Source: Anaerolineae bacterium | Lineage (GTDB): Bacteria > Chloroflexota > Anaerolineae > Aggregatilineales > J027 | Assembly (NCBI GenBank): GCA_019913005.1 | Contig: JAIOHL010000051.1 | Coordinates: 1-43,126 of the forward strand | Length of the DNA: 43,126 nt | Direction of reading: 5' to 3' | In this document: piece by piece, positions 1-18,823 of the stretch | Layout: the number at the start of each line of letters is the position of its first letter | How positions within the stretch are numbered: position 1 is the stretch's first letter | The notes under the pieces: model-generated | Database searches by the model: none | What the model saw: the letters and a program-made list of their open reading frames with translations, nothing else | Told to the model about the DNA's origin: nothing | Translations under genes and position numbers: made by a program

Positions 1-8
1 ATCAAAAC

Positions 9-260
9 ATGAGTATTTTTTTGGAAGGCAAGGCTCGACTGATCTTCGAGAACAGCCCGATTCGGGTCATTTTGGCCCAAAAGCAGGGCATGAACGTCTT
101 TCGGGAAGATGCGGCTTTTCAGCATTTTAATGAACAGCACCTCTCGATTATTTCTTCGCTACCGAGTTTTCATTTTCTACTGGATATACAAGACGAAGGC
201 ACGTTCTACCTTGTTAATCGCGCTTCACGCGATGAGCTACGGCGGTTTAGCTCGACCTAA
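9..260 (+). CDS. Hypothetical protein, 83 aa
   Basis: Small open frame read in the same direction as the genes that follow; I do not recognise a family. The product is mixed alpha/beta in composition with no membrane segment, signal peptide or cysteine cluster. It ends 11 bases before the start codon of the next small gene, whose Shine-Dalgarno sequence lies between them, and that gene overlaps topA by 4 bases. This three-gene tight spacing is the main argument that the frame is real. The first 8 bases of the window are not enough to see its own ribosome binding site, and the start could lie further upstream outside the window. Confidence 0.5.
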   Translation: MSIFLEGKARLIFENSPIRVILAQKQGMNVFREDAAFQHFNEQHLSIISSLPSFHFLLDIQDEGTFYLVNRASRDELRRFSST

Positions 261-271
261 AAGGAGATTTG

Positions 272-445
272 ATGGCAAAAAAGATGACGGATACGACCAC
301 CTTTCAGGTTCTGGAAAAAGATGCCTATCACGCTTTCATTGAGTGGCCGCTGTTTCTCATGCGTAAGCTGAAGCAGTTGGAACAGCATATTGCGGCGGCT
401 GAGGAAAATCTCAAGGGGACGGGCCAACGAAAGGAACAGAAATGA
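272..445 (+). CDS. Small hypothetical protein (57 aa), translationally coupled to topoisomerase
   Basis: An ATG at 272 follows a good ribosome binding site (AAGGAG at 261-266, five bases before the start). The frame encodes 57 residues, starting MAKKMTDTTTFQVL and ending in a Lys/Gln-rich tail, with a predicted amphipathic helix (KLKQLEQHIAAAEENL). Its TGA (443-445) overlaps the topA start codon (442-444) in an ATGA arrangement, which suggests translational coupling. No family is recognised. The strong SD and the overlap support a real gene despite the short length. Confidence 0.6.
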   Translation: MAKKMTDTTTFQVLEKDAYHAFIEWPLFLMRKLKQLEQHIAAAEENLKGTGQRKEQK

Positions 446-2346
446 GCAAATCGAAGGCGGCCAAACGTCTGGTGATTGTCGAATCGCCGGGCAAGGTCAA
501 GAAAATCCAGTCGTATTTGGGGGGCGAATTTCGTGTCATGGCTTCAATGGGCCATGTGCGTGATCTGCCTGCCGATGAGCTTGGCATTGATGTGGAAGGT
601 GGTTTCGTTCCCAAATGGCAGGCAGTCGCAGGCAAAAACACGGTCATCAAGCGCTTAGTTAAGGCAATGCAGGAGGCCGAGGCTATCTATCTGGCAACCG
701 ACCCTGACCGTGAAGGCGAAGCGATTGCCGCCCATATTTTGGCACTCACCAAACTGCCACGTGAGCAACCCGTGATGCGCGTGACCTTCACCGCTATCAC
801 TCAGGCGGCAGTGCGGCACGCGGTGGAAAATCCTCGGCGTTTGGATATGGCTTTGGTTGCTGCCCAACACGCTCGTCGTAAACTGGATCGTTTGGTAGGG
901 TATCTGGTTAGCCCAATTGCTTGTCGGGTACTGGATGGTCGTTATTCCGCTGGGCGAGTCCAGTCGCCAGCCCTGCGTCTCGTAGTCGAACGCGAACGGG
1001 CCATTCAGTCCTTTGCTCCGGAGACCTACTTCATCATTGAAGCATTATTGGGAGCGGGGGAATCCAGTTTCAAAGCCAAACTGACTCAAGTTCAGGGCAA
1101 AGAGCTGCCTCTAAAAGAAGCGGATTTCGTCAAACGGTTGGCTGCGACTCTCAATGCGGCAGTTTATTGGGTGGGTGAAATCAATACCGAAACTGCCCAG
1201 CGGAAACCACCAGCGCCTTTCACCACGAGCACTTTGCAGCAGGCTGCCAGCAGCACTTTGGGGTTATCACCTGAAAAGACGATGCAATTGGCTCAACTGC
1301 TTTACGAGGCTTCACTCATTACCTATATGCGAACCGATGCTGTGTTTATCACACCGGAAGCGCAAACAGCCGCGCTGGACTTTGTTGGCGAGACTTACGG
1401 AGCGCAGTATGTCCCGTCTGAGAAGCCGCAGTACAAGAGTAAACCCAATGCACAGGAGGCCCATGAAGCGATTCGCCCAGCCGATGTTACACTCATACCC
1501 GATCAGATTAAAGAGGAGGTGGGTGAGGGGGCCGTTTTGTATGGACTGATTTGGCGGCGTTTTGTTGCTAGCCAGATGGCCGCTGGAATGGACAGCGTAC
1601 AAACTATCACCGTGTTGGCAGGCAAACAGGCAGGTCAACCCTTTCCGGTAAAACTGACTGCCCGCAGCGTGACACCCCAATTTGATGGTTTTCGGCGAGT
1701 GTATCTGGCTGATTCCGATGTGGAAGCGGATGAATTAGCCGAGACGGAAATTACCCTCCCAGTGTTGCAGGAAGGCCAACCTCTGACCCTGCAAAAACTG
1801 CTGCCCCAACAGAAACAAACCCAAGCCCCAGCGCGTTTCACCGAAGCACAACTGGTACATGAATTGGAAAAACGCGGTATTGGGCGACCCAGCACCTATG
1901 CAGCCATTTTGAGCAATCTCAAGTCACGGGAGTATGTGCGTTTGGAGAAAAAGCGACTCACGCCCACCGCGACTGGCCTGAAGTTGACGGATTATCTGAT
2001 GGGTGGCTTTGCCACATTGCTGGCGGATGATTACACCGCCCGGATGGAAAGTACCCTTGATGAGATTGCGACAGGACAGCGCGAAGAATTGGATGTGCTG
2101 CAAGCCTTTTGGGGTGAATTCCAACCCCTGCTGCGTGGGGCGGCGGCTGAAATTAGCTCTTTGCCCGCCCAAGAAAAACGTCCCGAACCGCCGAAAACAG
2201 GTGAGCCATGCCCGCAGTGTGGCAGTGATCTGGTGTATCGCACTGGCTCGAAGGGGCAGTTTATTGGCTGTTCGGCTTTTCCCAAGTGCCGCTATGCGGT
2301 GGGTTTGGAACACCAGCCCCTGATTCTACAGCCTGCCAAATCTTAG
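442..2346 (+). CDS. Type IA DNA topoisomerase (plasmid/ICE-type topoisomerase I)
   Basis: Single-strand passing topoisomerase that relaxes negatively supercoiled DNA through a 5'-phosphotyrosine intermediate. The N-terminal Toprim domain opens with LVIVESPGKVKKI and carries the metal-binding acidic motif D87-P-D89-R-E91-G-E93. The central gate domain has the nucleophile in SLITYMRTD (Tyr295), and the nearby EAIRPAD motif is also typical of the family. A single C-terminal four-cysteine zinc finger is present (C590, C593, C610, C616). At 634 aa it is shorter than most chromosomal TopA proteins, which usually have several C-terminal zinc or other domains, and this fits an element-borne copy. Translationally coupled to the 57-aa gene upstream. 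Whether it serves replication, transfer or both cannot be read from the sequence. Confidence 0.93.
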   Translation: MSKSKAAKRLVIVESPGKVKKIQSYLGGEFRVMASMGHVRDLPADELGIDVEGGFVPKWQAVAGKNTVIKRLVKAMQEAEAIYLATDPDREGEAIAAHILALTKLPREQPVMRVTFTAITQAAVRHAVENPRRLDMALVAAQHARRKLDRLVGYLVSPIACRVLDGRYSAGRVQSPALRLVVERERAIQSFAPETYFIIEALLGAGESSFKAKLTQVQGKELPLKEADFVKRLAATLNAAVYWVGEINTETAQRKPPAPFTTSTLQQAASSTLGLSPEKTMQLAQLLYEASLITYMRTDAVFITPEAQTAALDFVGETYGAQYVPSEKPQYKSKPNAQEAHEAIRPADVTLIPDQIKEEVGEGAVLYGLIWRRFVASQMAAGMDSVQTITVLAGKQAGQPFPVKLTARSVTPQFDGFRRVYLADSDVEADELAETEITLPVLQEGQPLTLQKLLPQQKQTQAPARFTEAQLVHELEKRGIGRPSTYAAILSNLKSREYVRLEKKRLTPTATGLKLTDYLMGGFATLLADDYTARMESTLDEIATGQREELDVLQAFWGEFQPLLRGAAAEISSLPAQEKRPEPPKTGEPCPQCGSDLVYRTGSKGQFIGCSAFPKCRYAVGLEHQPLILQPAKS

Positions 2347-2360
2347 GGTGAGGTACTGGT

Positions 2361-3503
2361 ATGAGTTTGCTGCCACCTGACGATAATTGGCTGATCGAAG
2401 AGCCGTCGGATGATCTGTTCGATACCTTTGAGGACGAACCACCGGAATGGGACTTTGAAGATGCCACGCCATCCGAACCCCCAGATTTTCCGCCAATGGA
2501 CGATGAACCGGAGGCCTATGCGCCACCGATCCCTTCGGCACCGGATTATGTTGTACCAGAGGAATTATATGCCGATGAACCGCTGGAACTACCTGCCGAG
2601 GCCTATCCCACCCAGACAACCGCCCCTGTATCTGAAACCCTAGTTATCGAACGGGCAAGCACATGGCGGTTGCAGCAGAGTGGCGTCTTGATTGAGGAGG
2701 TCTTTGCCGATGCCCCTGACCCCGACCACTATGCGGTGGGTATCATGGAAGTTTGGCACGATCCCCAGACAGGCGACCAAAAAGGCGCGTATTTGCATAT
2801 GGCGGATGCACCCTATTTGGAACGTGCCGAAGAAATGCGGAACAACATCTACCGCATGGCCGATCAAGCAGGGGTGTCCGATCCCGATCTGGGGAATTTC
2901 GCGCATGGACTCATTCAGCAGCGCGGCGAGTGGCAGCCCTTGACCGATACTCAGTGGGAGGTGGTGGACAACACGCTTGCCGCCGACACACCAGATTTCC
3001 AAGATGAGGCGACATGGGCCGCACGCGATCCCCTGCTGGCACAGGCGGTTGAGATAAGTGGGGCTGAACTGGCTCGTGAGGAAATTGACCAACCGCATGA
3101 ATTGCAGGCCGTCATGCGTGGTTTGGGCTTGCAAGCGGCGGATTTTGACCCGGCCAACACACCGCCGCCTCTTTTTGATGAAAGCACCAATACGGCCTAT
3201 TGGATTGGCGTTTATCAGCCTGACCCGAACAACTCCCATGAGGCGATTACCTCCATCCTCTCGATTCAGCAGGATGAGACTGGTCATCCGATTGCCCATC
3301 TTGCGCCTGTCGCCACTGGGGATTGGGATCATGCTTATCGCACCGCCGAATATCTGCTGGGGGTCGCCGAGCGCACACAAGATGTGGGGCAGGTGTTAGA
3401 TACTGCCGAAGCAATGGCCGTCGCTACCCAGCAGCGCGACCTATGGGGCATTCCTGTGGAGGATGAGATTGCGTTCAGTCCGGTGGGGATGGAAATCGAA
3501 TGA
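2361..3503 (+). CDS. Acidic hypothetical protein with two copies of an element-specific repeat module
   Basis: A 380-aa protein starting 14 bases after the topoisomerase stop. The first ~85 residues are very rich in Asp, Glu and Pro and probably disordered. After that come two related modules. The first starts near HYAVGIMEVWHDPQTGDQKG and the second near AYWIGVYQPDPNNSHEAITS, each followed by an Ala/Glu-rich helix (ERAEEMRNNIYRMAD; AYRTAEYLLGVAERTQ). The same pattern of a short beta-rich start and then a helix recurs several times in the two large proteins encoded at 7223-12634, so these three genes form a family within the element. No catalytic motif, membrane segment or known domain was recognised. 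Confidence 0.8.
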   Translation: MSLLPPDDNWLIEEPSDDLFDTFEDEPPEWDFEDATPSEPPDFPPMDDEPEAYAPPIPSAPDYVVPEELYADEPLELPAEAYPTQTTAPVSETLVIERASTWRLQQSGVLIEEVFADAPDPDHYAVGIMEVWHDPQTGDQKGAYLHMADAPYLERAEEMRNNIYRMADQAGVSDPDLGNFAHGLIQQRGEWQPLTDTQWEVVDNTLAADTPDFQDEATWAARDPLLAQAVEISGAELAREEIDQPHELQAVMRGLGLQAADFDPANTPPPLFDESTNTAYWIGVYQPDPNNSHEAITSILSIQQDETGHPIAHLAPVATGDWDHAYRTAEYLLGVAERTQDVGQVLDTAEAMAVATQQRDLWGIPVEDEIAFSPVGMEIE

Positions 3504-3571: not shown

Positions 3572-6500
3572 TCATTTTGACTTGTCCGAATTGCCCTGTT
3601 CCTCCCGCCAGCGCCGCACAGCTTCCAATGCTTCCGGTGTACCGATTTGACCTAATGCCCATACTGCATCAGAGCGCACATCTGCATCAGAATCGCGCAA
3701 GGTGTCTAGCAAGATTGGAATGACAGCGGAATCGCCAATGTTCCCCAATACCACTACTGCTATTCGGCGAACATTGGCTTCAGAATCGTGTAGGGCCACT
3801 AATAACTCGGGAATGGCTAATTCGCCTATATTTTTCAGTACCACCACCGCCCGACCGAGCACCCAAAGGTCATCACAATCATGTAGGGCGTGCAAAAGAC
3901 CGGCGATGGCTGGTGTGCCTATCCTAGTCAATGCTTCAATTGCCTTATATCTCACCCTATCATCGCTATCTCTCAGAGCCTCCGCGAGACCGGGGACGGC
4001 AGTCGAGTCACCGATTTCGCCCAATCTGTAAGCCGCTCCTTCACGAATCGCAGCATTCTCAGCAAGAAGGCCTTTCAGATAAAAAGGCACCGGATTATCC
4101 CACCAGCGATGCACCACCTCTAGACCTTCCGATGTACCGATTTTTTCGAGGGCTTCGGCGGCATGGTCGCAAACAAACTCTTTCCCAGTTCCCAAAAGCC
4201 TTTCAGTGTCCGACAGCGCTTCAATCAGACTTGGTACTGCTGACGGGTTTCCAAGGATGCCTAGTGTTTTGGCTGTCTCACTTCGCACATATGGGTCAGA
4301 ATCACTCAATGTGGATAGCAGCGCAGGAGTGGTGGTTGGATCGCCGATCTGTCCCAATGCCTCGACCACGTTCTTACGCACTACCGCCTCCCTATCGTGC
4401 AAGGTATCCAACAGCACAGGAGTGGCGGTTAGGTCACCGATTCGCCCCAATGCTAATGCAGCCGCGGCTCGTCCATATTTCTTGAGATCACGGAGCGTGT
4501 CTAACAGCCCGGGGATGGCGGGCGTGCCAATTTTTTCTAATGCCTCAACTGCATTTCTGCGTACCAACCAATCGGTATCCCCTAGTGTCTCCAATAGGCT
4601 GGAGATGGAAGCTACGTCCCCAATACTACCTAATGCCTGTGTCGTGTGGGAGCGCACATCACTATCTTTATCGTGTAAAGCCTCCAACAAACTGGAAACG
4701 GCGGTTACATCCCCAATGTTGCCTAGTGCGGCGACGGCGCTGGCACGTACCTGTGGGCTAGGATCGTGTAGCGCCTCTAGTAGGTTGGGGAGAGCGACAG
4801 GGTCCCCGATGTTGCCCAATGCATTTGCTGCCAGACGGCGCACACTAATATCAGAATCGCGTAGGGCGTCTGAGAGAGCAGTGATGGCAATGGGGTCCCC
4901 AATGTTGCCTAGTGCGGCGGCGGCGCTGGCACGTACCTGTGGGCTAGGATCGTGTAGCGCTTCTAGTAGGTTGGGGAGAGCGACAGGGTCCTTGATGTTG
5001 CCCAATGCATTTGCTGCCCCTGCACGCACCTTTTCATTAAAATCCCGCAACGACTCTAATAGTCTGGGGACGGCAGGCGTCCCGATGTTGCCCAATGCTT
5101 CCCACGCCCTCCCTCGCACAATCTCATCGGCATCCCGAAGGATATCCAAGAGAGGAGGGACAGCAGCGGGATCACCGATTTGACCCAGTGCTAATGTCAC
5201 CGAACCACGCATTGTCGCATTGTTATTGTTCAGGGCTGCCGACAATGTGTCAATAACCTTTGCGCGGGCTGAATCTGAAACCTCAATCCCGCTCGCAAGG
5301 CAGTCAGCGGCCAGCAAGGGATCAATCCCGGTGATCTGAATAATAACCGATGAGGAATCAGCTAGAAGACCACATAAAGCTATTACTGCCTCGTCCCATT
5401 TGCCCACTGTTCGCCCGAAATAACCAAAACTGGGCTTCCGCAATTTTGTTTCAAACTCCACTCTTGACAATCCTACCGCTGCGAAATATTCCAGCATCAA
5501 CTGATGGCTAAAGCGCATCTCGTCGCCATTCATCGTAATCAAGTTTGCGCTGCGACCCACATTCAATAAATCTGTGTTGCCTAGCTTGCCTTCAGCGTAA
5601 TCCACTAGCACATCAATCGGTTGGTCTTCATCAATCATGCTAAATGCTAAATTACCGAACCCAGCCTGCATCTGTTCTAACGGAATCCAACTGGGGGTTT
5701 GGCGCAGGCGTTCACGTTCCCACAGTACCGTGACCAATTGATGAAACAATGCACCCGTATTGCGAGGCAAATCGCCGCCATATTCAAATATGAGCGCTAG
5801 AGCCGCAAGCAAATACGGATTGCGTGCCAGATGGAGCAGGGACCGTTCATCTTTGCGCTTCCTGTCCCCATCCGAATCATATCTTTCATACTGCGGAAAC
5901 ACCTTTTCAAGAAACGTCTTGGCCTGCTCCTCACCCAAATGCTGCACCGCGAACTCCCTAATTTTCTCATCCGTCAGCGGCTCGACCAGCACTGTCGGGA
6001 GGTCGCCCAATTTCAAATCGCCATGATAATCCCCTTGCCGGCAGGTGAGGACGGCATAACGTGGGCCGTCAGGGGATTGCAGCCATTGTCGCAGCAGGGC
6101 GGCCTTGTTTTTGCCTTCCCCACCCATCTCATTCAAGCCATCCAGATAGAGCCGCACCTGTCCGGATTGTAGTTTGCGCACCACGTCCCCGCTCATATAG
6201 GTCGCCTCCCATCGGCGGCGGATGAAATCGACAGCAGTAGATTCATCTGACCAGCGCGGCAGATAGACGAGGAAGGGCAAGGCGAATGAGCTATCACCCA
6301 TCTTCAATCCCTCTAAGCGGGCGCGGGCCATTTCTAATGCCAGACGGCGGATGGTGGTGGTTTTGCCCGCACCGGGGTCACCAATCAGCACAAATTTGTC
6401 ATGATCTGCGACAGCCTGCTGAATATTCTCAATCTTTTTGGTTTCGGGGCGCAACTCACGTTCGGGAGTAGGGGACTTCAGCAGCAGGGCCAGACTCGGT

Positions 6501-7063
6501 TCGACATTTTTGCGCGGACGGGGGTCGACGCGGACGACTTCAGATTGAGCGGAGAGAGCAATATGATTTTCGACCCCCTGCTGGCTTTCCAAATCGGCAA
6601 TCAGGCTGGTCAGATATTGGATTTCAGCGGAGGGCACATCCCCAAACGAGTCGTTTTGGTCGCGCTGGATACGTTCGACCAACAACTCGAATTGGGCTTG
6701 ATACGCCTTGTCATCCAGCCAATCCAAAAAATTGAGGCGCTGGATCCGTCGCAGCCGGAAAGGGATGTCATCGTCGTTCAGCCGCCGCAGCAGAATCGGG
6801 AAAATGGGCCAGTCTTTTTCAAGGGCATAGCTCCACTCATCGTGACACACCCGCGATTTCAAATAATCCGGGGTCAGAATGACAATCATACCGCGACAGT
6901 GACGTTTGAGGGCCTCATCAATCGCCTCGTCCCAATTGTCACCGGGTCGGATGTCCATGCGGTCAATCCAGATGTTGACCCCATGATTTTTTAGCGCAGC
7001 CGCTAGTTGGAGGGCGAACGGATTTTCTTCGGATTTATAGCTGATAAAGAGGGTGTCGGGCAT
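3572..7063 (-). CDS. TIR-NACHT-HEAT-repeat protein (NLR-like, putative antiphage STAND ATPase)
   Basis: Three-part 1163-aa protein. Residues 1-135 are a TIR domain: FISYKS at 6-11, and the usual catalytic glutamate position in the stretch SRVCHDEW (Glu76). Residues 215-560 are a NACHT/STAND NTPase with Walker A GDPGAGKTT (228-236) and Walker B LYLDGLNE (305-312), followed by a helical region. From about residue 600 to the end there are roughly sixteen 31-residue HEAT/PBS-lyase-type repeats built on ALGxIGDPxAVPxLLxALxDxDxxVR. In known bacterial antiviral STAND proteins the C-terminal repeats sense a phage product, the NTPase oligomerises and the TIR depletes NAD+; that role here is inferred. 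It stands alone, divergent from the 7223 gene, with its own promoter candidate at 7103-7131. Two HEAT units are duplicated almost exactly at DNA level (4711-4832 and 4897-5018). Confidence 0.9.
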   Translation of the reverse strand: MPDTLFISYKSEENPFALQLAAALKNHGVNIWIDRMDIRPGDNWDEAIDEALKRHCRGMIVILTPDYLKSRVCHDEWSYALEKDWPIFPILLRRLNDDDIPFRLRRIQRLNFLDWLDDKAYQAQFELLVERIQRDQNDSFGDVPSAEIQYLTSLIADLESQQGVENHIALSAQSEVVRVDPRPRKNVEPSLALLLKSPTPERELRPETKKIENIQQAVADHDKFVLIGDPGAGKTTTIRRLALEMARARLEGLKMGDSSFALPFLVYLPRWSDESTAVDFIRRRWEATYMSGDVVRKLQSGQVRLYLDGLNEMGGEGKNKAALLRQWLQSPDGPRYAVLTCRQGDYHGDLKLGDLPTVLVEPLTDEKIREFAVQHLGEEQAKTFLEKVFPQYERYDSDGDRKRKDERSLLHLARNPYLLAALALIFEYGGDLPRNTGALFHQLVTVLWERERLRQTPSWIPLEQMQAGFGNLAFSMIDEDQPIDVLVDYAEGKLGNTDLLNVGRSANLITMNGDEMRFSHQLMLEYFAAVGLSRVEFETKLRKPSFGYFGRTVGKWDEAVIALCGLLADSSSVIIQITGIDPLLAADCLASGIEVSDSARAKVIDTLSAALNNNNATMRGSVTLALGQIGDPAAVPPLLDILRDADEIVRGRAWEALGNIGTPAVPRLLESLRDFNEKVRAGAANALGNIKDPVALPNLLEALHDPSPQVRASAAAALGNIGDPIAITALSDALRDSDISVRRLAANALGNIGDPVALPNLLEALHDPSPQVRASAVAALGNIGDVTAVSSLLEALHDKDSDVRSHTTQALGSIGDVASISSLLETLGDTDWLVRRNAVEALEKIGTPAIPGLLDTLRDLKKYGRAAAALALGRIGDLTATPVLLDTLHDREAVVRKNVVEALGQIGDPTTTPALLSTLSDSDPYVRSETAKTLGILGNPSAVPSLIEALSDTERLLGTGKEFVCDHAAEALEKIGTSEGLEVVHRWWDNPVPFYLKGLLAENAAIREGAAYRLGEIGDSTAVPGLAEALRDSDDRVRYKAIEALTRIGTPAIAGLLHALHDCDDLWVLGRAVVVLKNIGELAIPELLVALHDSEANVRRIAVVVLGNIGDSAVIPILLDTLRDSDADVRSDAVWALGQIGTPEALEAVRRWREEQGNSDKSK
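4711..4832. repeat. Direct repeat copy 1 inside HEAT-repeat region
   Basis: 122 bases that recur at 4897-5018 with 4 mismatches by direct alignment. The offset is 186 bases, exactly two 93-base (31-aa) HEAT units. The surrounding HEAT units match each other only at protein level, so this pair points to a recent in-frame duplication. Confidence 0.9.
4897..5018. repeat. Direct repeat copy 2 inside HEAT-repeat region
   Basis: Second copy of the 122-base segment at 4711-4832, with 118 of 122 bases identical. The reading frame is kept because the spacing is a multiple of 93 bases. Confidence 0.9.
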
Positions 7064-7102: not shown

Positions 7103-7131
7103 ATTATAGGATTGGAGATGGAAACGTGCAA
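7103..7131 (-). promoter_or_regulatory. Sigma70-like promoter for the TIR-NACHT-HEAT gene
   Basis: On the minus strand a TTGCAC box (7131-7126) is followed after exactly 17 bases by a perfect TATAAT (7108-7103). The -10 box lies 40 bases upstream of the start codon at 7063. The match is good for a housekeeping promoter. No operator-like palindrome is evident between it and the gene. Confidence 0.55.
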
Positions 7132-7222
7132 TTTTCGATATGGATTTCCTCGATTGTGATTGATCCTCTTTCGTCAAACCATTGAACAACCCCAAATCCT
7201 TACCGCCTCTACACTTTTTATT

Positions 7223-10200
7223 ATGACTACGGCAGCAATTCGACAATTCCCCAACGATACTTTTAGCGTGCTGGATGAGGATGGTTCAGCGCATCTTGTC
7301 GCGTTCGATGAGGGCGCGGTCTATGGCGTCGAATTGCCGTTCCCCGAAAGTGATGATGACCGTTACCGCGTGGATTTAGTCCGCAGCACTCGTCAAACGC
7401 ATGGGGTCGAAGTCGAACAGCGGCTGACGTTGGCGGAGTATGTCAGTCATACCGAAGCCGAAGAACACCTCCACGAAGCCTCCACCGCCCTCTATGAGCA
7501 GGGCCGCGCCGCCATTGAGGAGCATCTACCCAGTATCCAGAACCAACCTATTGAATATGCGGCAGGGTACATGGTTGCCAGCTATCCCCCCGATGCAGTG
7601 TTCACGGGGGAGTCGGCTTCGGTCTCCATTCTCGCGCTTAACGAACAGGGTACTGCCAATGCCGTAATTGGCCGGAATATATCTCCTCATGAAGCCTCAG
7701 CCTTGAGCATGACACTCGAAGAGGCACAGGCTAAGGGGAATTTACCAATGCTGATGGAAACCGCTGCCCATGAAGCGCAGGCACGTGGTCATTTGTCAGC
7801 CGATCAGCCGCTGTTCCCTGCCTCCCCTAACTCCCCAACATTCTATTTAGACCATCGGGCGGAGATGGAACGTGCTGCTGAAATGGAGATAGACGCTCCA
7901 TCAGATGTGGGCTGGGGCTGGCATGAAACTTGTTTTGCTGTTTTGCCGCCGACGCAATCCGGGCAACTCTATCAAACAGCACTGCTGGATGTGTACCGCG
8001 ATGTTTTGAGCGGTGATCTGGCAGGTAGTTATCTGCCACTGGGTCAGCATAACACCCTAGCAGGAGCGCAGGGACAATGTGATGAACTGGAAGCGGTAGC
8101 TTTCGATGCCCATGATTCTTCGGAAGGCTGGGTGAAATTTTCTGAAAAGCAAGTGGATACCCCCACATGGCAGCCGATGCAGCCTGCCCATTATGCCTTA
8201 TATGAACAACGGGTTGGGCGCGAGCCACTATCTGACCTGCCCACTTATCCCGAGATGGACTCCTTGTTAGCTGAGGCGCTGCGTTTGGGTGGAGAGATTA
8301 CGGATATAAAAAGAGAGGAACAAGGTATGGCAAATACATTAAAAGCCGAACGGGTAGCTTGGCAAACCGACCTGAATGAACATGTGAGTTATCTCCCACC
8401 TTACGTCATGGCGGCTTATCGTTCGCCCGAAAATGCCACTGGTATCGCTCCCCTGCGTATCCATCCACAGAGTGATCCCACATCACCGCTGTACGGGTTT
8501 GAAGTATCGGCCCCGAATGACAAAGGGGATGTGACATTATCGGCAATCAAAACGTTTGAAAGCGATATCCTACAAAAAGAAGTCACCGAATCTGCCGTTC
8601 TCAAAACGTACCGCCCCCGCGACTATGATGAATCGGTCTCGTATCTTGACCCGCGCTCGGATGCCATCGCCGATGCCCGCGCCTTGGTTTATGAATGGGG
8701 TCGTCATGATCTTGACCATGCAATGGGATCGGCGCTACGGCTGGCCCAAGATAATGGTTTTAAGGGCGATACGCTCTTTGAACATGGTCCGGCGGACGCC
8801 TTCACCATCCCCGATGATGCCCGCCCAATCGCGACCATTCATCGGGAGCGGGAATGGGAACGGGATGCCGAATTGTTTGGCTTGAATGGGTACAAAGTTC
8901 CCCTGCCTGCCCATGTGATTCATGCCCAAGAAGTTGGGCGATACGGTGGCGAGATAGAAGTCGAACCCGGCCTTTTTTATGGGGTGATGGTGCGTGAAGA
9001 AGCATCGGAAGGCAGCGAGCAACCCACCTATCTGGTCGAAGGGGTCAAAGCGTGGCTCGAACATGAGACGCTCGAGACCAAAATGGAAGCCGTGACGTTG
9101 GGCATGGAATCAGACCGCGCCGCAGCATTCCAAACTGCCTATCAGGTTGTGGAATCCCCGGATGTAGTAGATCGGTTGGAAACAATGGCCGGGCTGGCCC
9201 ATGACTTTGCCCAACATGCTGCCGACTTGCCTGAAGATAGAATGCCCACCTCTCTGCATCTACGCAATGAAGGTTTATTCCATGAAGGGCCACCTGATCC
9301 GGCACGTCATGGGCTAGAAATGGATTGGGGAAGTCATGAGGCGGCAGCAATTGTGACCCCTCCCCCTGCATCGAATCATTTTGCTCCCCCACGCCTTGAT
9401 TACAGCCGGATGGTTGGCGAAGCGGCCTACGACCTGCCTTTGGAAGAGGGGCTGGGTTATGAATTTCGGATGCGCCCCATCCCGGACTTGGAAGTTGAAG
9501 TGGCTCGTTATGGGGTCGATGCGCTGGCGGTTGAAACTGTCAAACACTGGCAGGCAAACGATGAACCTCAGCAAGAGGTGGTAACTCTGGGTATTTACTT
9601 TGACCGCGATGAAGCCCGCGAAGAAGTGGATACCTATGTTTCTATGGCAGAACGAGAAGGTATTCAATCCGCTATGACCCGTGCGGCGATGCTGGCGGAT
9701 GTGCAAAGTTACCCGGATATGGTGAGTCGAGCTGAGGAACTAGACCTCCACCTCAACGCGGATGTGCGTTTTGGGGAGATGTTTCAGGAAGGCCCGGATG
9801 ACCCTTTCCTTGCCGAGCGGGAAATAAACTATGCGGCCCAACAGTATGCAGCGGATTATCCGCCCCACCATGAGCTATCCTTTGAGGTTGTGCCCGTTCA
9901 CAGTCCCACCGGAGCGTCTTTAGGGCATTCAGTCGTGGCGCTCGATGCAGCATGGGAACATGATGAGACCTCCCGCGACTGGGATACATCGCAGATGGTG
10001 ACGGCCTACGAAGTCGCCCAGTTTGAGCAGCAGCACGAAGCCGACTTCTACGCGGCATCTCTGCGAGAATACTTGGACAAACGCGATTTGGAGATACAAG
10101 GGAGCAACCTTGTACCGGCACTTGAGTTTGTCCAAAGTGTGCAGTCGGTCAATGGGGTAGGCGAAAACAAGTATGTGCTCAATCCCTCGGAAGTCGCACG

Positions 10201-10309
10201 CGTGGAACGGAATGAATGGGCCATCCAGCACCACATCGAGGACTTCCATCCCATCTCCATGCAGCCTACACTCGAACAACAATCCGTCGTGATGGATTGG
10301 GAACTCTAA
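7223..10309 (+). CDS. Large repeat-module protein of unknown function (about 1028 aa)
   Basis: Cytoplasmic, acidic protein without recognised enzyme motifs or membrane segments. It is built from at least four diverged copies of a module that starts with a short beta-rich segment (LYGFEVSAP, LFYGVMVRE, YEFRMRPIP, LSFEVVPVHSPTGASLGHSVVALD) and continues with an Ala/Glu-rich helix. Three copies carry a second signature, LFxEGPxDPF-like (TLFEHGPADAF, GLFHEGPPDPA, MFQEGPDDPFLAERE). The last module is strikingly like two modules at the C-terminus of the next gene. The ATG at 7223 (MTTAAIRQF) is preferred; an in-frame TTG at 7160 would add 21 residues. Neither has a clear Shine-Dalgarno sequence. 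The next gene starts 3 bases after this stop, so the two are probably co-transcribed. It may be a scaffold or binding protein; function unknown. Confidence 0.82.
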   Translation: MTTAAIRQFPNDTFSVLDEDGSAHLVAFDEGAVYGVELPFPESDDDRYRVDLVRSTRQTHGVEVEQRLTLAEYVSHTEAEEHLHEASTALYEQGRAAIEEHLPSIQNQPIEYAAGYMVASYPPDAVFTGESASVSILALNEQGTANAVIGRNISPHEASALSMTLEEAQAKGNLPMLMETAAHEAQARGHLSADQPLFPASPNSPTFYLDHRAEMERAAEMEIDAPSDVGWGWHETCFAVLPPTQSGQLYQTALLDVYRDVLSGDLAGSYLPLGQHNTLAGAQGQCDELEAVAFDAHDSSEGWVKFSEKQVDTPTWQPMQPAHYALYEQRVGREPLSDLPTYPEMDSLLAEALRLGGEITDIKREEQGMANTLKAERVAWQTDLNEHVSYLPPYVMAAYRSPENATGIAPLRIHPQSDPTSPLYGFEVSAPNDKGDVTLSAIKTFESDILQKEVTESAVLKTYRPRDYDESVSYLDPRSDAIADARALVYEWGRHDLDHAMGSALRLAQDNGFKGDTLFEHGPADAFTIPDDARPIATIHREREWERDAELFGLNGYKVPLPAHVIHAQEVGRYGGEIEVEPGLFYGVMVREEASEGSEQPTYLVEGVKAWLEHETLETKMEAVTLGMESDRAAAFQTAYQVVESPDVVDRLETMAGLAHDFAQHAADLPEDRMPTSLHLRNEGLFHEGPPDPARHGLEMDWGSHEAAAIVTPPPASNHFAPPRLDYSRMVGEAAYDLPLEEGLGYEFRMRPIPDLEVEVARYGVDALAVETVKHWQANDEPQQEVVTLGIYFDRDEAREEVDTYVSMAEREGIQSAMTRAAMLADVQSYPDMVSRAEELDLHLNADVRFGEMFQEGPDDPFLAEREINYAAQQYAADYPPHHELSFEVVPVHSPTGASLGHSVVALDAAWEHDETSRDWDTSQMVTAYEVAQFEQQHEADFYAASLREYLDKRDLEIQGSNLVPALEFVQSVQSVNGVGENKYVLNPSEVARVERNEWAIQHHIEDFHPISMQPTLEQQSVVMDWEL

Positions 10310-10312
10310 AAC

Positions 10313-12634
10313 ATGGCTTATGAGTTACCCGTGCCCCGCCCCGGCCAAAAAAGCGGCGGTATCTATTCGGTGGGCTATAATGCGTGGCAGGGTGGTAAGG
10401 GACTGTCGGGCATGTTCGATGCCCTAGAAGCCGAAGGCGTCACTATTCTGGTAGATACCCGCAACAGCGACTTTCGCGGCAGGTACAGCTATGACCAACT
10501 GACGCAGACTGCCGCTGAGCGAACGGGCATCAATGGTCGCCCGATGCGTTTTGCACCTCGATCGGCCTTGACGGGCAAACCGCGTCAAGACGAGGAATAT
10601 ACCTCCGCAGGGCAGGCGGACTATGCCATGATGGATACCCGCCCGGATGCCACGCATGTTCTTAATGGCATGGTTGAAGCTGCCCATAAAGGCGAACGTA
10701 TCGCGCTTTTGTGTGCTTGTGCGGACACCTGTACCTGTCATCGCACCCGCTGGTTGGCTGAATCGCTGGCGCAACGGGGTGTGGATGTGGGCCATATTGA
10801 GCCGGGTGAATTTGATCGGGAACGCTATCGAGAAGAAGGCGTGCAGGAACTCTATCGCATTACCCCTCATTCCGAGTTGCCCCATCTTTCTTCCCACAGC
10901 GATGTCAACTGGCGTGAACAGGCGGAGCGGTGGAATCAGCCAAAAGAACCACAACCGATTCCCAAAGGATATCGTTCACCTCAAGCGACCAAACCAATCC
11001 CAACCAATCCTCGTCAAATCCTGATTGCGGGCAGTATGAATGCCAATAATGCCCAGTTGAACTATGCGTCGGCGTTGGTGGTGCGGGCGGCTGAAATCGG
11101 GGCACAAATCCATGTGGGCGATAATGATCAAGGGGTGGATGCGCGGGTGGTTGAGACGGCCAATGCCATTGGTTATCACGATGTTGTGGTTTGGACAGCG
11201 GGCGGCACACCTCGCAATGGCGGTGTTGAGGGTGGGCAAGTGTATCAAGTACCCTATAACTATAAAGAACAAGGCAACCGTTATATCCAGCGTGACCGCA
11301 CGATGATTCGTGGGGTAGATGACGAGGAGGGTGCAGCCTTTTTCATTGACAACGGACACACCCATCACCGCAATGGGCGAATGACCGGCACGGAGGCAGG
11401 TTATGTCTTTGCGGTGGAGCATAGCAAAGCGGCTCGCAAGGTTTCTTTCGGGAGGCAGCAAGATCGGGAAGCCGAACTGAAGCCCCTGCCAACCACCTAT
11501 GTACCCCAATATCGTCCTCAACTGCCCGAGTTCGACCCCAGTCTTTTTGAGAAACCTGCGCCGCCGATTAATGATCCCACCCCTGCCACTTCGTCTTTGG
11601 GGGAAGTTGATTCAGCACCCCAACCTCCAAAACCACTCACCGATGTCGAAAAATGGGGTATGGCACTGGAGACAGCCGAAACATTGGCGACTGAACGCGA
11701 ACATAACGCCGTATACACCCGACGACCCGGTCATCGGACAGCCGAAGTCTTGGACATGCAGGTTCTACCTGTCACCGACCAAAAAGGGGATTCATTGGGT
11801 TATGCAGTTGCGGCGGTGGATGTGCGCTGGCGAGCCACGCCTTTCAAGCTTAATACGGAGGATTGGCGGAGTGCGGATACCGTCAGCGTGACCGAAGTTG
11901 CCCATTTCAAACACGAGCATCAAGCCGAGACATATAAGGAACACCTACATGGGTTTATGGAAGTCCATGACATGACCGATGATCCTGCGCAACGTCGAGA
12001 TTTTTTGCGCGAGGTAGGGCAGTTGAATGGACTTCGGGCTGGCATCCACACAACCGACCTGATTCGCATGGGCGCAACCCAACTGCCGGACCATCGGGCT
12101 GAAATCGGCGCATTACAATCTGGCGAGTGGGAACTCAAAACCGTGAAATTGGGTTTTCACCCGATGGATAAAGATGTACCCGAACCTCCCCCTGAGCCAT
12201 TCTATGGATTTTCGATTCATGCAGTCCAAACCGTAGATACGGAAGGGCAGCACTTGGGTTATTCGACTGTCGCGCTACGTGATGTCTATGAAAATGGGCT
12301 ACCAATTGGAAATGAAATCACTGAGAGCTACGTCATGGAGCTTGCTCGATTTGAGAAACAAGATGATGCAAAACAATATGCCGATGGGCTGATGGAGTAT
12401 ATCAAGGACAAACCGGGCTTGGAGTTCATTGGTTCACCAGAAAACACAGCGGAGACACACGCCTTTTTAGAAAAGGCGGCTCAGGAGAATGGTTTGCTAG
12501 GGAAGGAACAAGTCATCGAACGTGAAATCCTATTTCAGGAACAAACCCTCACTTCACTCCATAACCTCGAAGCGTCAGTCATTCACCAAAGGTTGTTCAA
12601 TATTGAGGGTTTAGATGCCTTAACACTCGAATAA
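10313..12634 (+). CDS. DUF488 - SLOG/DUF2493-like - repeat-module fusion protein
   Basis: 773-aa protein. Residues ~15-180 are a DUF488 domain: YSVGYNAW near the start, LVDTR (47-51) and the cysteine-rich LLCACADTCTCHR (132-144), which is the classic DUF488 core. Residues ~234-375 look like a SLOG Rossmann domain of the DUF2493/YAcAr type, with ILIAGSMNANN, then GDNDQGVDARVVETANAIG, then VVVWTAGGTPRN. The remaining ~300 residues hold two copies of the module shared with the preceding gene (MQVLPVTDQKGDSLGYAVAAVD and FSIHAVQTVDTEGQHLGYST), each followed by a VxExAxFExxxxAxxY helix. SLOG domains bind or process nucleotide-like ligands, and DUF488 has been linked to nucleotide and stress contexts. 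The joint role here is unknown. It starts 3 bases after the upstream stop. Confidence 0.82.
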   Translation: MAYELPVPRPGQKSGGIYSVGYNAWQGGKGLSGMFDALEAEGVTILVDTRNSDFRGRYSYDQLTQTAAERTGINGRPMRFAPRSALTGKPRQDEEYTSAGQADYAMMDTRPDATHVLNGMVEAAHKGERIALLCACADTCTCHRTRWLAESLAQRGVDVGHIEPGEFDRERYREEGVQELYRITPHSELPHLSSHSDVNWREQAERWNQPKEPQPIPKGYRSPQATKPIPTNPRQILIAGSMNANNAQLNYASALVVRAAEIGAQIHVGDNDQGVDARVVETANAIGYHDVVVWTAGGTPRNGGVEGGQVYQVPYNYKEQGNRYIQRDRTMIRGVDDEEGAAFFIDNGHTHHRNGRMTGTEAGYVFAVEHSKAARKVSFGRQQDREAELKPLPTTYVPQYRPQLPEFDPSLFEKPAPPINDPTPATSSLGEVDSAPQPPKPLTDVEKWGMALETAETLATEREHNAVYTRRPGHRTAEVLDMQVLPVTDQKGDSLGYAVAAVDVRWRATPFKLNTEDWRSADTVSVTEVAHFKHEHQAETYKEHLHGFMEVHDMTDDPAQRRDFLREVGQLNGLRAGIHTTDLIRMGATQLPDHRAEIGALQSGEWELKTVKLGFHPMDKDVPEPPPEPFYGFSIHAVQTVDTEGQHLGYSTVALRDVYENGLPIGNEITESYVMELARFEKQDDAKQYADGLMEYIKDKPGLEFIGSPENTAETHAFLEKAAQENGLLGKEQVIEREILFQEQTLTSLHNLEASVIHQRLFNIEGLDALTLE

Positions 12635-12653
12635 CATGACCTGAAATGTTATT
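12630..12653. terminator. Hairpin between convergent genes, possible bidirectional terminator
   Basis: Perfect 8-base inverted repeat AATAACAT (12630-12637) and ATGTTATT (12646-12653) with an 8-base loop. It overlaps the stop codon of the DUF488-SLOG gene and abuts the stop of the convergent gene at 12653. The stem is AT-rich and weak, so termination is only suggested by position. Confidence 0.35.
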
Positions 12654-13414: not shown

Positions 13415-13499
13415 AATCAGCCTCTTCTACAACGTCTGCATCTATTTTCTCATATCTTATTGGTTGGTGCGAAGCCCTACTTGAGCTTCTTGCTAAGTC

Positions 13500-14230: not shown

Positions 14231-14575
14231 TTAATCATTTTTCTTGATACCACTCTTTTGGATATGTGGCCGATAAGACCCGCTTCGTAAATTTTCTTTC
14301 CTTAGTCGTTGTTTCAGGACATTGCTCATCCGCGCATCCACGCGATAAGCCACTTTTTGCATGGGAGTATCCTCTCGATGATGCAGCAATTTGCCACGCC
14401 GATGGGTTTTCATTTGTGTAACCTTAATGCTCAGAAAACCCTGAATGGAAATTTGCTCACCATTTGTTAGTGCATCCGTCCATACTTCAAGCAATGCTTC
14501 CAGCGTGGTTTGTACCTGAAAGTAGGTGTGTCCAGTCTTGCGGGCGACTGCTCGAACGGTGGTTTGTTTATTCAT
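14231..14575 (-). CDS. HU/IHF-like DNA-binding protein
   Basis: 114-aa basic protein of HU-family layout: an N-terminal helical pair (TTVRAVARKTG, LEALLEVWTDALTNGEQISI), then QGFLSIKVTQMKTHRRGK as the short beta segment, and a C-terminal helix (DARMSNVLKQRL), plus a basic tail. In place of the usual DNA-bending Pro arm it has a short basic stretch. Its start overlaps the coupling-protein stop by 4 bases (ATGA), making it the last gene of the mobilisation operon. HU-family proteins bend DNA and help assemble relaxosomes and recombination complexes; that role here is an inference from position. Confidence 0.75.
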   Translation of the reverse strand: MNKQTTVRAVARKTGHTYFQVQTTLEALLEVWTDALTNGEQISIQGFLSIKVTQMKTHRRGKLLHHREDTPMQKVAYRVDARMSNVLKQRLRKENLRSGSYRPHIQKSGIKKND

Positions 14576-16617
14576 GCTCCGGCTCTCCGTAAATCCTTCA
14601 AACTCGCATTAAACACCTGATGGTTGGGAGCAACTACGGCCAATAGATCATCACTGGCCTGCGCTCGTTGTTCGGCGGGTAATTTCTGGCTTTTCTGATA
14701 AATGGCATCAAAATGGGCGTCAAGGCTAGGATGCACGGAGCTAGCCTGTGGCTCAGGGACAAGGGGTCTGGTCTGCATATTGAGTGCTTCAATCAAACGA
14801 ATTGTGATGCCACGCTCTAATAATAGCGGTTCACGTTCCACACTATTTTTAAGATGCACTGCCCAATCTTTACGCTCATATAGGCGGGTCAAGCGACAAG
14901 TCAGGATAATCTGGGTGGCATAACCCGGATCAACATAACGAGCGAGAAGGGTAGCATTCCCCGCCTGTGGCGTAATCACTTCGTCCACTGTCAGCAAGGG
15001 GCGACTGCGATAGGTGGGGTGGTCTTTATCCCCATCTTGTTGGGTTGCAGTACCAGAAGCACGACTGTAGAACTCGGCGGTTTCCGCATCACACCCACCA
15101 TAGACAATCTGGGTTGCCAACCCTGTAAAGAGAGCCTGCGTGCCATCATTGCCGTAAATGAGGTGGAACTGCCCTTTGGTCTGGGCAGCAATCAAAATGC
15201 TGATACGCCGCTTACGGACAAGGTTCACATCTGCGACAAGGCTGTCGAGCCTGCCGAGTGTCGGAAACTCGTCCAAGATGATATTGACGGGCATGGGCAA
15301 CGGCCCCTGATTGGCTTCCCCGATGGTATCCAAGTCCAGCATCAGTTTGCGGAGGACTGCTCCGAGATAGGAGGCATAAACGGCTCGCATTCGTCCGGGG
15401 CAGGTCAATACAACGACCGTTGGCTGCTGCACGATGAGGTCAGCATCGAAATCACTGGCACCCGTATTCTGGCGCACATCAATCGAAGCCCAGCCTGTCA
15501 GGGCAGTGGCGAGCGTCGCCACGACATTGGAGGCTACTTTGCCATCGGAATTGACGCTGGCAATAAACGAGTTTGCCAGTAGCGCGGCGTCATCGACTTT
15601 TTTGCCAAAGTCGCTTGCCATCACCTTGAGGTCTTTGAGAGCCTCATAAATCTCGCCCAGATTGCTATAACGAATGAGACAGGCGGCCAGCAACGCGGCG
15701 GCACTGTCTGACCAGAACTTGTTATCACCTTGGGCTGATGGAACCAGCACGTCCGCGATGGCCCGCGCATCGGAAACAGTTTGGATGTTCTCAGCCAGAT
15801 TAAAACGCGGCGAATCCGTACCGGTGGGATCATGGATTACGACCAGATGTCCAGTCACCCGCGCATATTTGAGGATGTGATGTTTGAGTTCCCCTTGTGG
15901 ATCGGCGACGATTAGGCTGTGGCGATTCATCATGTTATCGGCAATCGCGGGCAGGATCACCCCTTGAGATTTACCTGACCCCGGGCCGCCGAGTGCTAGA
16001 ATGCCTCTAGCCGCATCTTCGCCGTTCAGACAAAACATGCCTTGCCCCGCATCCAGTCGCATTTTCCGCTCCCCCCAGAATGCCCCGTAGAAGGTCATGC
16101 CTTCTAAATCGGATCGGCGATAGCGTTTGTACTCGCGGTGGGTACAGAAATGGGATGAACCGAGTTCACCACGCTGGACACGCGGATTGCGCTGTTGATC
16201 AAGTTTCTGCCGCAGCCAGCCACCCGGTTGCAAATTCTGATAGATGACCATGTTCACCAGAAAGAGGGTAATCCAGTGTCCAATCGCAAAAATAAGGATG
16301 CGTGGCTGATTTACATACCGGGGTGGTTGTCCAACGACCATCCCGAGAAAACCCGTCAAGTCAGTGCTGTACCCGCGCACCACTGCAAAATGGCTGGTGA
16401 CGCCTATATAGATGAAGGATACGATCAAGGTGACGGCTAGGTGCAGCACCACTCGTGACCTATGACCCGACTGCCCACCCGCTTCACTGCGCCGGATATC
16501 TGCACCTAAATGCCATGCAAAGCCGATGACCAATATCGGCAGCAGGCACAAGAGGGGTGCAATCAGGAAAGGACTGCCGAGTAGCGCCTGTCCATCGGTG
16601 AACAGCTTGAAATACAT
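14572..16617 (-). CDS. VirD4/TraG-type type IV coupling protein
   Basis: Inner-membrane ATPase that hands the relaxase-DNA complex to a type IV secretion channel. Three hydrophobic segments lie at roughly residues 18-37, 57-80 and 106-126, before the cytoplasmic ATPase domain. Walker A is GGPGSGKS (210-217). Walker B is VNIILDEFPTLG (Asp449/Glu450). The stretch following Walker B, with VDADLNLVRKRRI-like and AAQTKGQF features, is typical of TraG/TraD. The length (681 aa) is normal for the family. It sits between a small membrane protein and the HU-like gene in one leftward operon with a relaxase-like protein. No VirB/Tra channel genes are in the window. Confidence 0.92.
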   Translation of the reverse strand: MYFKLFTDGQALLGSPFLIAPLLCLLPILVIGFAWHLGADIRRSEAGGQSGHRSRVVLHLAVTLIVSFIYIGVTSHFAVVRGYSTDLTGFLGMVVGQPPRYVNQPRILIFAIGHWITLFLVNMVIYQNLQPGGWLRQKLDQQRNPRVQRGELGSSHFCTHREYKRYRRSDLEGMTFYGAFWGERKMRLDAGQGMFCLNGEDAARGILALGGPGSGKSQGVILPAIADNMMNRHSLIVADPQGELKHHILKYARVTGHLVVIHDPTGTDSPRFNLAENIQTVSDARAIADVLVPSAQGDNKFWSDSAAALLAACLIRYSNLGEIYEALKDLKVMASDFGKKVDDAALLANSFIASVNSDGKVASNVVATLATALTGWASIDVRQNTGASDFDADLIVQQPTVVVLTCPGRMRAVYASYLGAVLRKLMLDLDTIGEANQGPLPMPVNIILDEFPTLGRLDSLVADVNLVRKRRISILIAAQTKGQFHLIYGNDGTQALFTGLATQIVYGGCDAETAEFYSRASGTATQQDGDKDHPTYRSRPLLTVDEVITPQAGNATLLARYVDPGYATQIILTCRLTRLYERKDWAVHLKNSVEREPLLLERGITIRLIEALNMQTRPLVPEPQASSVHPSLDAHFDAIYQKSQKLPAEQRAQASDDLLAVVAPNHQVFNASLKDLRRAGA

Positions 16618-18789: not shown

Positions 18790-18823
18790 ATGATTAGGTT
18801 TAAACTTATTGCGAGGCAGTTTA

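What the first reader, a model, noticed from the sequence alone, without database searches (positions are those of the whole stretch)
3572..7063. TIR-NACHT-HEAT, an NLR-like putative antiphage sensor on a mobile element
Seen: TIR with Glu76, NACHT Walker A/B and about sixteen HEAT units in one protein with its own promoter. Known: bacterial STAND proteins with TIR or nuclease effectors sense phage proteins through C-terminal repeats. Inference: this is an antiphage sensor carried as element cargo, with HEAT repeats as the recognition surface.
Basis: partly seen in the sequence, partly recalled or inferred. Interest (0 to 1): 0.7.

Follow-up and report, generated by a model that had tools for sequence, protein, structure and literature searches.

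The report
TIR-NACHT-HEAT immune receptor, mobile-element cargo
A Chloroflexota mobile element carries a gene that looks like an animal or plant NOD-like immune receptor (a TIR enzyme, a NACHT switch and a long HEAT-repeat sensor), most likely a suicide alarm against phages or rival DNA; the design is of a known kind, but its sensor repeats appear to have been rebuilt while the rest of the protein was kept.

Summary
On the minus strand, 7063 to 3572 is one 1163-aa protein: TIR (Glu76 present), NACHT with Walker A/B, about 17 HEAT helix pairs. Predicted folds match NLRC4/NLRP3/NOD2 (best chains Z 24-27) and SPARTA TIRs (Z about 20). Relatives of the TIR-NACHT half occur in 43 of 151 genomes of its order, own included. 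No defence model of NCBIfam reaches its cut-off, and PADLOC matches are domain-level. It is cargo: five sibling elements, four of them about 88% identical in DNA, lack it at the same site; one carries a different TIR gene there. The HEAT array looks changeable: a same-genome paralogue, 74% identical up to the array, has about half as many repeats, whereas nine of ten other close pairs keep colinear arrays and the tenth is cut by a contig end. Variation concentrates on five positions randomised in alphaRep binders. Antiphage function is inferred, not shown; neighbours of 12 relatives are not convincingly defence-rich. New member of a known kind (bacterial NLR-like STAND receptors), with a testable sensor-remodelling story.

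The parts
3572..7063 (-). TIR-NACHT-HEAT protein, 1163 aa (P0001)
6635..7063 (-). TIR domain, residues 1-143
   Evidence: TIR_2 E 4.7e-28; model matches SPARTA TIR, best Z 20.3, rmsd 1.7 over 135 residues
6836..6838 (-). codon of the predicted catalytic Glu76
   Evidence: aligned with a Glu of solved TIR 7uxr
5234..6634 (-). NACHT module with winged-helix region, residues 144-610
   Evidence: NACHT E 4.7e-9; best chains of NLRC4/NLRP3/NOD2 at Z 24-27
6359..6382 (-). Walker A GDPGAGKT, residues 228-235
6128..6145 (-). Walker B LDGLNE, residues 307-312
3590..5275 (-). HEAT array, about 17 helix pairs plus cap helix, residues 597-1158
4896..5018 (-). first copy of a 123-nt block duplicated 186 nt (two HEAT units) apart
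   Evidence: 4 mismatches in 123 nt; unit pair dS 0.04
4710..4832 (-). second copy of the duplicated 123-nt block
3594..3640 (-). 3' tail of the array, the only array DNA found shared with the same-genome paralogue at E 1e-5 (47 nt, 94%); in protein the last 86 residues still align at 62%
7103..7131 (-). possible promoter TTGCAC-17-TATAAT (not listed by the scan)
   Evidence: read by eye
1..3503 (+). left flank conserved in sibling elements (topA and 2361-3503 gene)
   Evidence: 87-88% DNA identity in four siblings, about 69-70% in the fifth; topA
7166..12459 (+). right flank conserved in sibling elements (7160-10309 and 10313-12634 genes)
   Evidence: 87-89% DNA identity in four siblings, about 65-69% in pieces in the fifth
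14572..16617 (-). VirD4-like coupling protein of the carrying element
   Evidence: NF045973 E 3.9e-34, below that model's curated cut-off
20955..22516 (-). PRTRC ThiF-like and PRTRC B-like genes of the carrying element
   Evidence: TIGR03736 E 6.1e-39, TIGR03737 E 1.8e-14, both below curated cut-offs

Best explanation
P0001 is a single-protein, NLR-like STAND immune sensor carried as exchangeable cargo of a conjugative-type element. At rest the NACHT/winged-helix module is closed. An intruder molecule, most likely a phage protein, binds the HEAT superhelix; ATP binding then lets NACHT oligomerise, which brings TIR domains together; the TIRs consume or convert NAD+ through Glu76, and the cell stops growing or dies before the intruder spreads. 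Shown: architecture, conserved catalytic-position and nucleotide-binding residues, predicted folds, cargo status, and array change between paralogues. Inferred: nature of the trigger, oligomerisation, NADase activity, protective effect.
For: Domains and motifs. NACHT module residues 144-610: best NLRC4/NLRP3/NOD2 chains at Z 24-27, rmsd 3.3-3.7 over 379-398 residues; TIR residues 2-143: SPARTA TIRs at Z about 20. Solved TIRs nearest in sequence include the AbTIR NAD+ hydrolase, E 3.3e-7. Cargo: absent at the same site in 5 of 5 sibling elements examined; one of these carries another TIR gene there. Sensor-like array: between paralogues 74% identical up to the array, only 47 nt of array DNA matched at E 1e-5, and the repeat number differs about twofold; recent two-unit duplication; entropy concentrated on alphaRep-type binding positions. 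Tested relatives by design: bNACHT25/32 use N-terminal effector, NACHT and C-terminal sensor against phages (PMC12169576, passages read).
Against: No NCBIfam defence model reaches its cut-off (best: Thoeris ThcB4 45.7 of 220 bits over the TIR, EruA 43.1 of 1000 bits over part of the NACHT); the one model that does, DVU0298_fam (87 of 75 bits), matches the HEAT repeats. PADLOC matches are to TIR, HEAT or NTPase parts of other proteins. Neighbours of 12 relatives (97 ORFs) show no convincing excess of PADLOC matches over 134 control ORFs. No match in 50,697 phage records and no plasmid record covering 80% of the TIR-NACHT half among 72,556. Most arrays that could be compared are colinear between close relatives, so fast sensor change is not a property of the whole family. 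The last 86 residues of the two paralogues still align at 62%, so part of the array end is shared.
Confidence: 0.6

Rival explanations
1. Inter-element exclusion: the receptor protects its carrier element by killing or arresting cells invaded by competing plasmids or conjugative elements rather than by phages.
For: It is cargo of a conjugative-type element; the host genome holds a second, 88% identical element, so element competition is plausible; another TIR gene occupies the same site in a sibling.
Against: Several relatives of the family lie on contigs of hundreds of kilobases, one of 1.46 Mb, presumably chromosomal, so the family does not depend on an element.
Confidence: 0.18
2. Regulated cell death or non-self recognition within filamentous or aggregating Chloroflexota, triggered by host-derived cues, as proposed for conflict systems of multicellular bacteria.
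For: The genome holds 45 places matching the TIR-NACHT half, 31 of them confined to the TIR (residues 1-140), and modular variants such as TIR-NACHT-receiver and NACHT-FGE; vWA-MoxR ternary conflict systems are reported to be widespread in multicellular bacteria including Chloroflexi (PMC7159879, passages read).
Against: Cargo status and variable presence among elements fit accessory defence better than a core developmental pathway.
Confidence: 0.12
3. Ordinary STAND signalling regulator in which the TIR is a non-enzymatic adaptor.
For: STAND-type regulators of other kinds exist, and the window itself encodes an NB-ARC/TPR/LuxR protein (25045-27426).
Against: Glu76 is invariant in 19 and at least 90% conserved in 29 members; no DNA-binding domain is among the 25 of 30 Pfam families shown for P0001.
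Confidence: 0.1

Closest known systems
Bacterial NACHT (bNACHT, NLR-related) antiphage proteins, e.g. bNACHT25/32 (PMC12169576, passages read)
   Same: Central NACHT, N-terminal effector, C-terminal sensor in one protein
   Different: TIR instead of PD-(D/E)XK nuclease; HEAT array instead of the NCH1 or SNaCT C-terminus; no phage test
STAND (NACHT or nSTAND1) antigen sensors with DGR-diversified C-lectin domains, some with TIR effectors (PMC10907252, passages read)
   Same: STAND NTPase with a variable C-terminal sensor in bacteria rich in conflict systems
   Different: Variation here is in HEAT repeats, with a unit duplication; a diversity-generating retroelement was not looked for
Fungal NLRs with high internal repeat conservation, HNWD of Podospora (PMC12222747 and PMC4986451, passages read)
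   Same: NACHT receptor with repeat sensor whose units duplicate; some fungal cases are HEAT repeats
   Different: Bacterial, TIR effector; only one recent unit duplication, median unit identity 0.48 in protein and 0.54 in DNA over 36 pairs, well below the 80% or more of HNWD
SPARTA (TIR-APAZ/Ago) and TIR-SAVED
   Same: TIR fold and sequence similarity of the TIR
   Different: Other sensors; no Ago, APAZ or SAVED domain is among the 25 of 30 Pfam families shown, and the PADLOC matches to such proteins begin in the TIR
PADLOC TIR-NLR (PDLC03015)
   Same: Name suggests the same layout
   Different: P0001 does not match this model at E 0.01, although the other TIR protein of the window does, E 2.9e-5

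Membership tests
STAND NTPases, NACHT clade | NACHT domain with Walker A and B | tested here: met
   NACHT 36.7 bits against cut-off 26.7; motifs
STAND NTPases, NACHT clade | NLR-type NOD fold with winged-helix region | tested here: met
   predicted model, residues 144-610 against NLRC4/NLRP3/NOD2, best chains Z 24-27
STAND NTPases, NACHT clade | ligand-triggered, ATP-dependent oligomerisation | not testable with these tools
   needs biochemistry
TIR NADases | TIR fold with conserved Glu at the active-site position | tested here: met
   aligned Glu in 7uxr; that this Glu is catalytic is recalled
TIR NADases | NAD+ cleavage | not testable with these tools
   needs assay
bacterial NLR-related antiphage proteins (bNACHT) | effector-NACHT-sensor order in one protein | tested here: met
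bacterial NLR-related antiphage proteins (bNACHT) | protection against phage | not testable with these tools
   needs plaque assays
PADLOC TIR-NLR (PDLC03015) | match to the model | tested here: not met
   absent from the 21 families listed for P0001 at E 0.01
HIC (high internal repeat conservation) NLRs | units of at least about 80-85% mutual identity | tested here: not met
   1 of 36 unit pairs reaches 80% in protein, median 0.48; DNA median 0.54
HIC (high internal repeat conservation) NLRs | unit number and content change between close relatives | tested here: met
   P0001 and L051: 331 gap residues in the array; only 47 nt of array DNA matched

The most novel reading that the evidence does not exclude
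P0001 belongs to a bacterial TIR-NLR lineage in which the HEAT sensor is remodelled, or swapped as a cassette, between a conserved TIR-NACHT chassis and a conserved C-terminal tail, and mobile elements ship these re-aimed receptors through a common cargo site: a bacterial counterpart of the repeat-shuffling fungal NLRs, using HEAT repeats whose five helix-2 positions vary as in engineered alphaRep binders. (Probability lowered from 0.35 to 0.3 on checking: the last 86 residues align at 62%, and units are no more alike within a protein than between the two, apart from the one duplicated pair, so swap and plain gain, loss and divergence cannot be told apart.)
Probability: 0.3. Interest if true: 0.68.

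Novelty: new member of a known kind. Interest (0 to 1): 0.45.

Why it matters
If the array is the exchangeable specificity part, a natural same-genome pair (same chassis, different arrays) makes the question 'what does the repeat domain of a bacterial NLR recognise, and how does it change?' directly testable by swapping arrays between two existing proteins. It would also tie a repeat-shuffling mode of receptor evolution, known from fungi, to bacterial immunity carried on mobile elements.

Tried and rejected
Considered and rejected: an ORF on the + strand (many stops). Chance repeats (HEAT_2 E 1e-187). Terminal repeats that would mark the contig as a closed circle: no end-to-end direct repeat of 16-300 nt and no shared 20-mer between the first and last 600 bases. 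A defence-island argument: 97 ORFs of 150 aa or more within 6.5 kb of 12 relatives, chosen for their long contigs, matched 46 PADLOC families at 1e-10, and 134 ORFs from 12 control stretches of the same contigs matched 11; but 18 of the 25 neighbour families shown are PD-T4-6 models with one member each, and the control matches include TIR and restriction models, so I claim no enrichment. A phylum sample of 400 genomes gave only the own genome at E 1e-50, but few first-look candidates per genome were scored there (3 in the rows shown), so it says little about breadth. The search for related loci with the TIR-NACHT half found no relative in genome contigs (29 pattern matches, none a relative) and no pattern match in viral contigs; that tool finds close relatives only from a single protein. 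Foldseek with the whole protein was swamped by HEAT proteins. The idea that the whole family has homogenised repeats was dropped: of 53 genes compared (P0001 and the 52 ORFs), six reach 0.74 or more in best internal 93-nt identity (P0001 .98, L079 .92, L096 .87, L094b .84, L051 .76, L094a .74), four ORFs had no measurable array, and the other 43 reach at most 0.67 (for L096 and L094b the array fell on the other side of my automatic boundary and the value is read from the second column). On a NACHT tree P0001, L051 and L096 group together while L079 and L094 lie elsewhere (no support values examined).

Text search: 'TIR-NACHT', 'TIR-NACHT-HEAT' and 'NACHT-HEAT' as strings occur in one paper of the open library, on amphioxus (search listing only); the main bNACHT and Avs papers are not held, so I do not claim that the architecture is undescribed.
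Full report
What is there. The + strand of 3572-7063 is full of stops; the minus strand is one open frame of 1163 aa, P0001. Pfam finds TIR_2 at residues 6-128 (E 4.7e-28), NACHT at 224-390 (E 4.7e-9) and HEAT_2 (E 1e-187, 14 stretches). Glu76, Walker A GDPGAGKT (from 228) and Walker B LDGLNE (from 307) are present. AlphaFold2 on a 29-member alignment gives mean pLDDT 87 with an ordered TIR, an ordered NACHT module and, by my count of the helices listed, about 17 HEAT helix pairs plus a cap helix; 163-207, 392-406 and the last residues are poor. A second model of residues 1-610 (pLDDT 86.6, pTM 0.86) matches the best chains of NLRC4, NLRP3 and NOD2 over residues 144-610 at Z 24-27 (rmsd 3.3-3.7 over 379-398 residues), and SPARTA TIR-APAZ chains over the TIR at Z about 20 (best: rmsd 1.7 over 135 residues). 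By sequence, the nearest solved TIRs include the AbTIR NAD+ hydrolase (E 3.3e-7), and Glu76 is aligned with a Glu in 7uxr. That this Glu is catalytic is established knowledge of TIR NADases, recalled.

Family. In the same taxonomic order 43 of 151 genomes, own included, hold a match to the TIR-NACHT half at E 1e-40 or better; 39 of the 47 matches listed span it from residue 6 or earlier to 591 or later. In a relatives sample 18 of 61, own included, match at E 1e-30. The C-terminal parts that I printed (29 of the first 30 ORFs; one was too short) look HEAT-like by eye; Pfam confirmed HEAT only in those scanned (P0001, L094a, L079), and two distant own-genome relatives have other C-termini (receiver, FGE). 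In a 19-member alignment of the N-terminal half Y9, E76, G228, K234, D308 and G309 are invariant. The genus is Chloroflexota: contigs of three sibling genomes have the same lengths as named Chloroflexi MAG contigs (NC_groundwater_1614, CFX5, CFX10). No plasmid record covers 80% of the query and no phage record matches. PADLOC gives only domain-level matches and its TIR-NLR model is not among them. In NCBIfam the best defence models stay far below their cut-offs (ThcB4 45.7 of 220 bits, EruA 43.1 of 1000); one model, DVU0298_fam, passes (87 of 75 bits) through the HEAT repeats.

Cargo. The gene that follows the site (7160-10309) has matches in 21 of 151 genomes of the order; the closest are of 87-90% protein identity in the own genome (contig C199) and three congeners, and a weaker, split one (59% and 49%) in a genome of the same family. 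I examined these five loci; in the other 16 genomes the matches are short (at most about 200 residues, 32-41%) and were not examined. Comparing the first 20 kb of the window with the five, DNA identity of 87-89% (about 65-70% in the fifth) runs from the start to about 3500, stops, and resumes at 7166-7168 (7217 and 7309 in two). P0001 is absent from all five. Between the flanks lie about 370 nt in two siblings (a 98-aa ORF in L132), about 80-90 nt in two, and 3.8 kb in G002, which holds a different TIR gene (TIR_2 plus FGE-sulfatase domain) and an SH3/PPC protein. So this intergenic site takes cargo, and 2 of the 6 elements compared carry different TIR genes there. The element has a VirD4-like coupling protein and PRTRC-like genes, all scoring below the curated cut-offs of their models; a relaxase was not identified. 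Two copies of the element, about 88% identical, in one genome (C305 and C199) argue for horizontal acquisition (inference).

The array. A second TIR-NACHT-HEAT gene in the same genome (L051, 873 aa) is 74% identical over the first 600 residues, with dS 0.57-1.5 in segments of codons 1-560, yet it has about half as many repeats. At DNA level the only part of the HEAT half matched at E 1e-5 is the last 47 nt (94%). In protein the arrays are of course alike as HEAT repeats (51% over 163 residues in one stretch), and the last 86 residues align at 62% without gaps, so the last two units and the tail are probably shared by descent and the change is in the middle. As a control I compared all pairs with at least 55% N-half identity among 43 of the 53 genes (over 800 aa, L094 left out): 11 pairs, not independent. 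In nine of the ten other pairs the array is colinear with 0-33 gap residues; the tenth, L052/L056, has 114 but L056 is cut by the contig end. P0001/L051 has 331. So change of array length is peculiar to this lineage among those compared. Inside P0001 a 123-nt block is repeated two units (186 nt) away with 4 mismatches, and the unit pair 692/754 has dS 0.04, far younger than the paralogue split; other unit pairs are old (median DNA identity 0.54, protein 0.48, 36 pairs). Thus a unit pair was copied recently, but the array as a whole is not homogenised to the level of fungal HIC receptors (80% or more; PMC12222747, PMC4986451, passages read). Units are as alike between the two paralogues (median 0.48) as within P0001, so a swapped cassette and plain gain, loss and divergence of units cannot be told apart.

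Recognition surface. I aligned 19 HEAT units of P0001 (13) and L051 (6); irregular units were left out and both copies of the duplicated unit were kept. The five positions that vary in alphaRep binder repeats (17, 18, 21, 22, 25; read from the solved alphaRep sequence, design recalled) have mean entropy 3.09 bits against 1.20 for the rest; 9e-5 of all five-position sets reach this, and 0.001 of sets within positions 15-31. Positions 15 and 7, outside this set, are also variable (3.11 and 3.01 bits). The units are not independent, and natural PBS-HEAT families vary at these positions anyway (recalled), so this supports a binding surface without proving selection by phages.

How it most likely works. 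Array binds an intruder molecule, NACHT opens and oligomerises, TIRs cluster and consume or convert NAD+, and the cell stops. Architecture, residues, predicted folds, cargo status and array change are shown; trigger, oligomerisation, enzymatic activity and protection are inferred by analogy to bNACHT proteins (PMC12169576, passages read) and TIR NADases.

Against. Neighbours of 12 relatives are not convincingly defence-rich. Most comparable relatives have stable arrays. The promoter is only plausible. The genome is a 365-contig assembly, so long-read confirmation of the repeat is desirable.

Unexplained. Between P0001 and L051 TIR codons 36-145 have dN 0.25-0.45 against 0.03-0.06 in codons 1-35 and 146-230, at dS 0.6-1.1 throughout; an exchange of the second TIR half or accelerated change would both fit. 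No other TIR above 39% identity was seen in the own genome.

Verdict. A real, well-formed NLR-like TIR-NACHT-HEAT receptor carried as element cargo: a new member of a known kind. The sensor-remodelling evidence is the part most worth following.

Noticed in passing
window 18809-20938 (+): A 709-aa protein fuses a dephospho-CoA kinase domain (CoaE, E 2.6e-31) at the N-terminus with a TIR domain (E 2.3e-16) at the C-terminus; a second TIR protein on the same element, in an A+T-rich stretch.
   Followed up: no
L133:11877-13481 (-): A sibling element carries a TIR plus FGE-sulfatase protein at the same cargo site, next to an SH3/PPC protein.
   Followed up: partly
L093:8378-11143 and L095:6626-9322: Own-genome variants with the same kind of chassis but other C-termini: TIR-NACHT-response-regulator receiver, and NACHT-FGE.
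   Followed up: partly
L094:8600-13764: Two tandem genes in the own genome, NACHT-HEAT without a TIR (Pfam on the first only; the second by blastp and eye), with high internal repeat identity (best 93-nt 0.74 and 0.84).
   Followed up: partly
L079:6327-8360: A NACHT-HEAT relative with no TIR match at E 1e-5 and with internally near-identical HEAT units (0.92).
   Followed up: no
window about 12460-13500: A second stretch where sibling elements differ from the window, possibly another cargo site.
   Followed up: no
window 20955-22516: PRTRC-type genes (ThiF-like E1 and PRTRC B-like) on the element.
   Followed up: no
L002:3505-4770: Beside the paralogue, a divergent ORF with a TIR-like start and a KGGVGKT ParA/MinD-like stretch (read by eye).
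   Followed up: no
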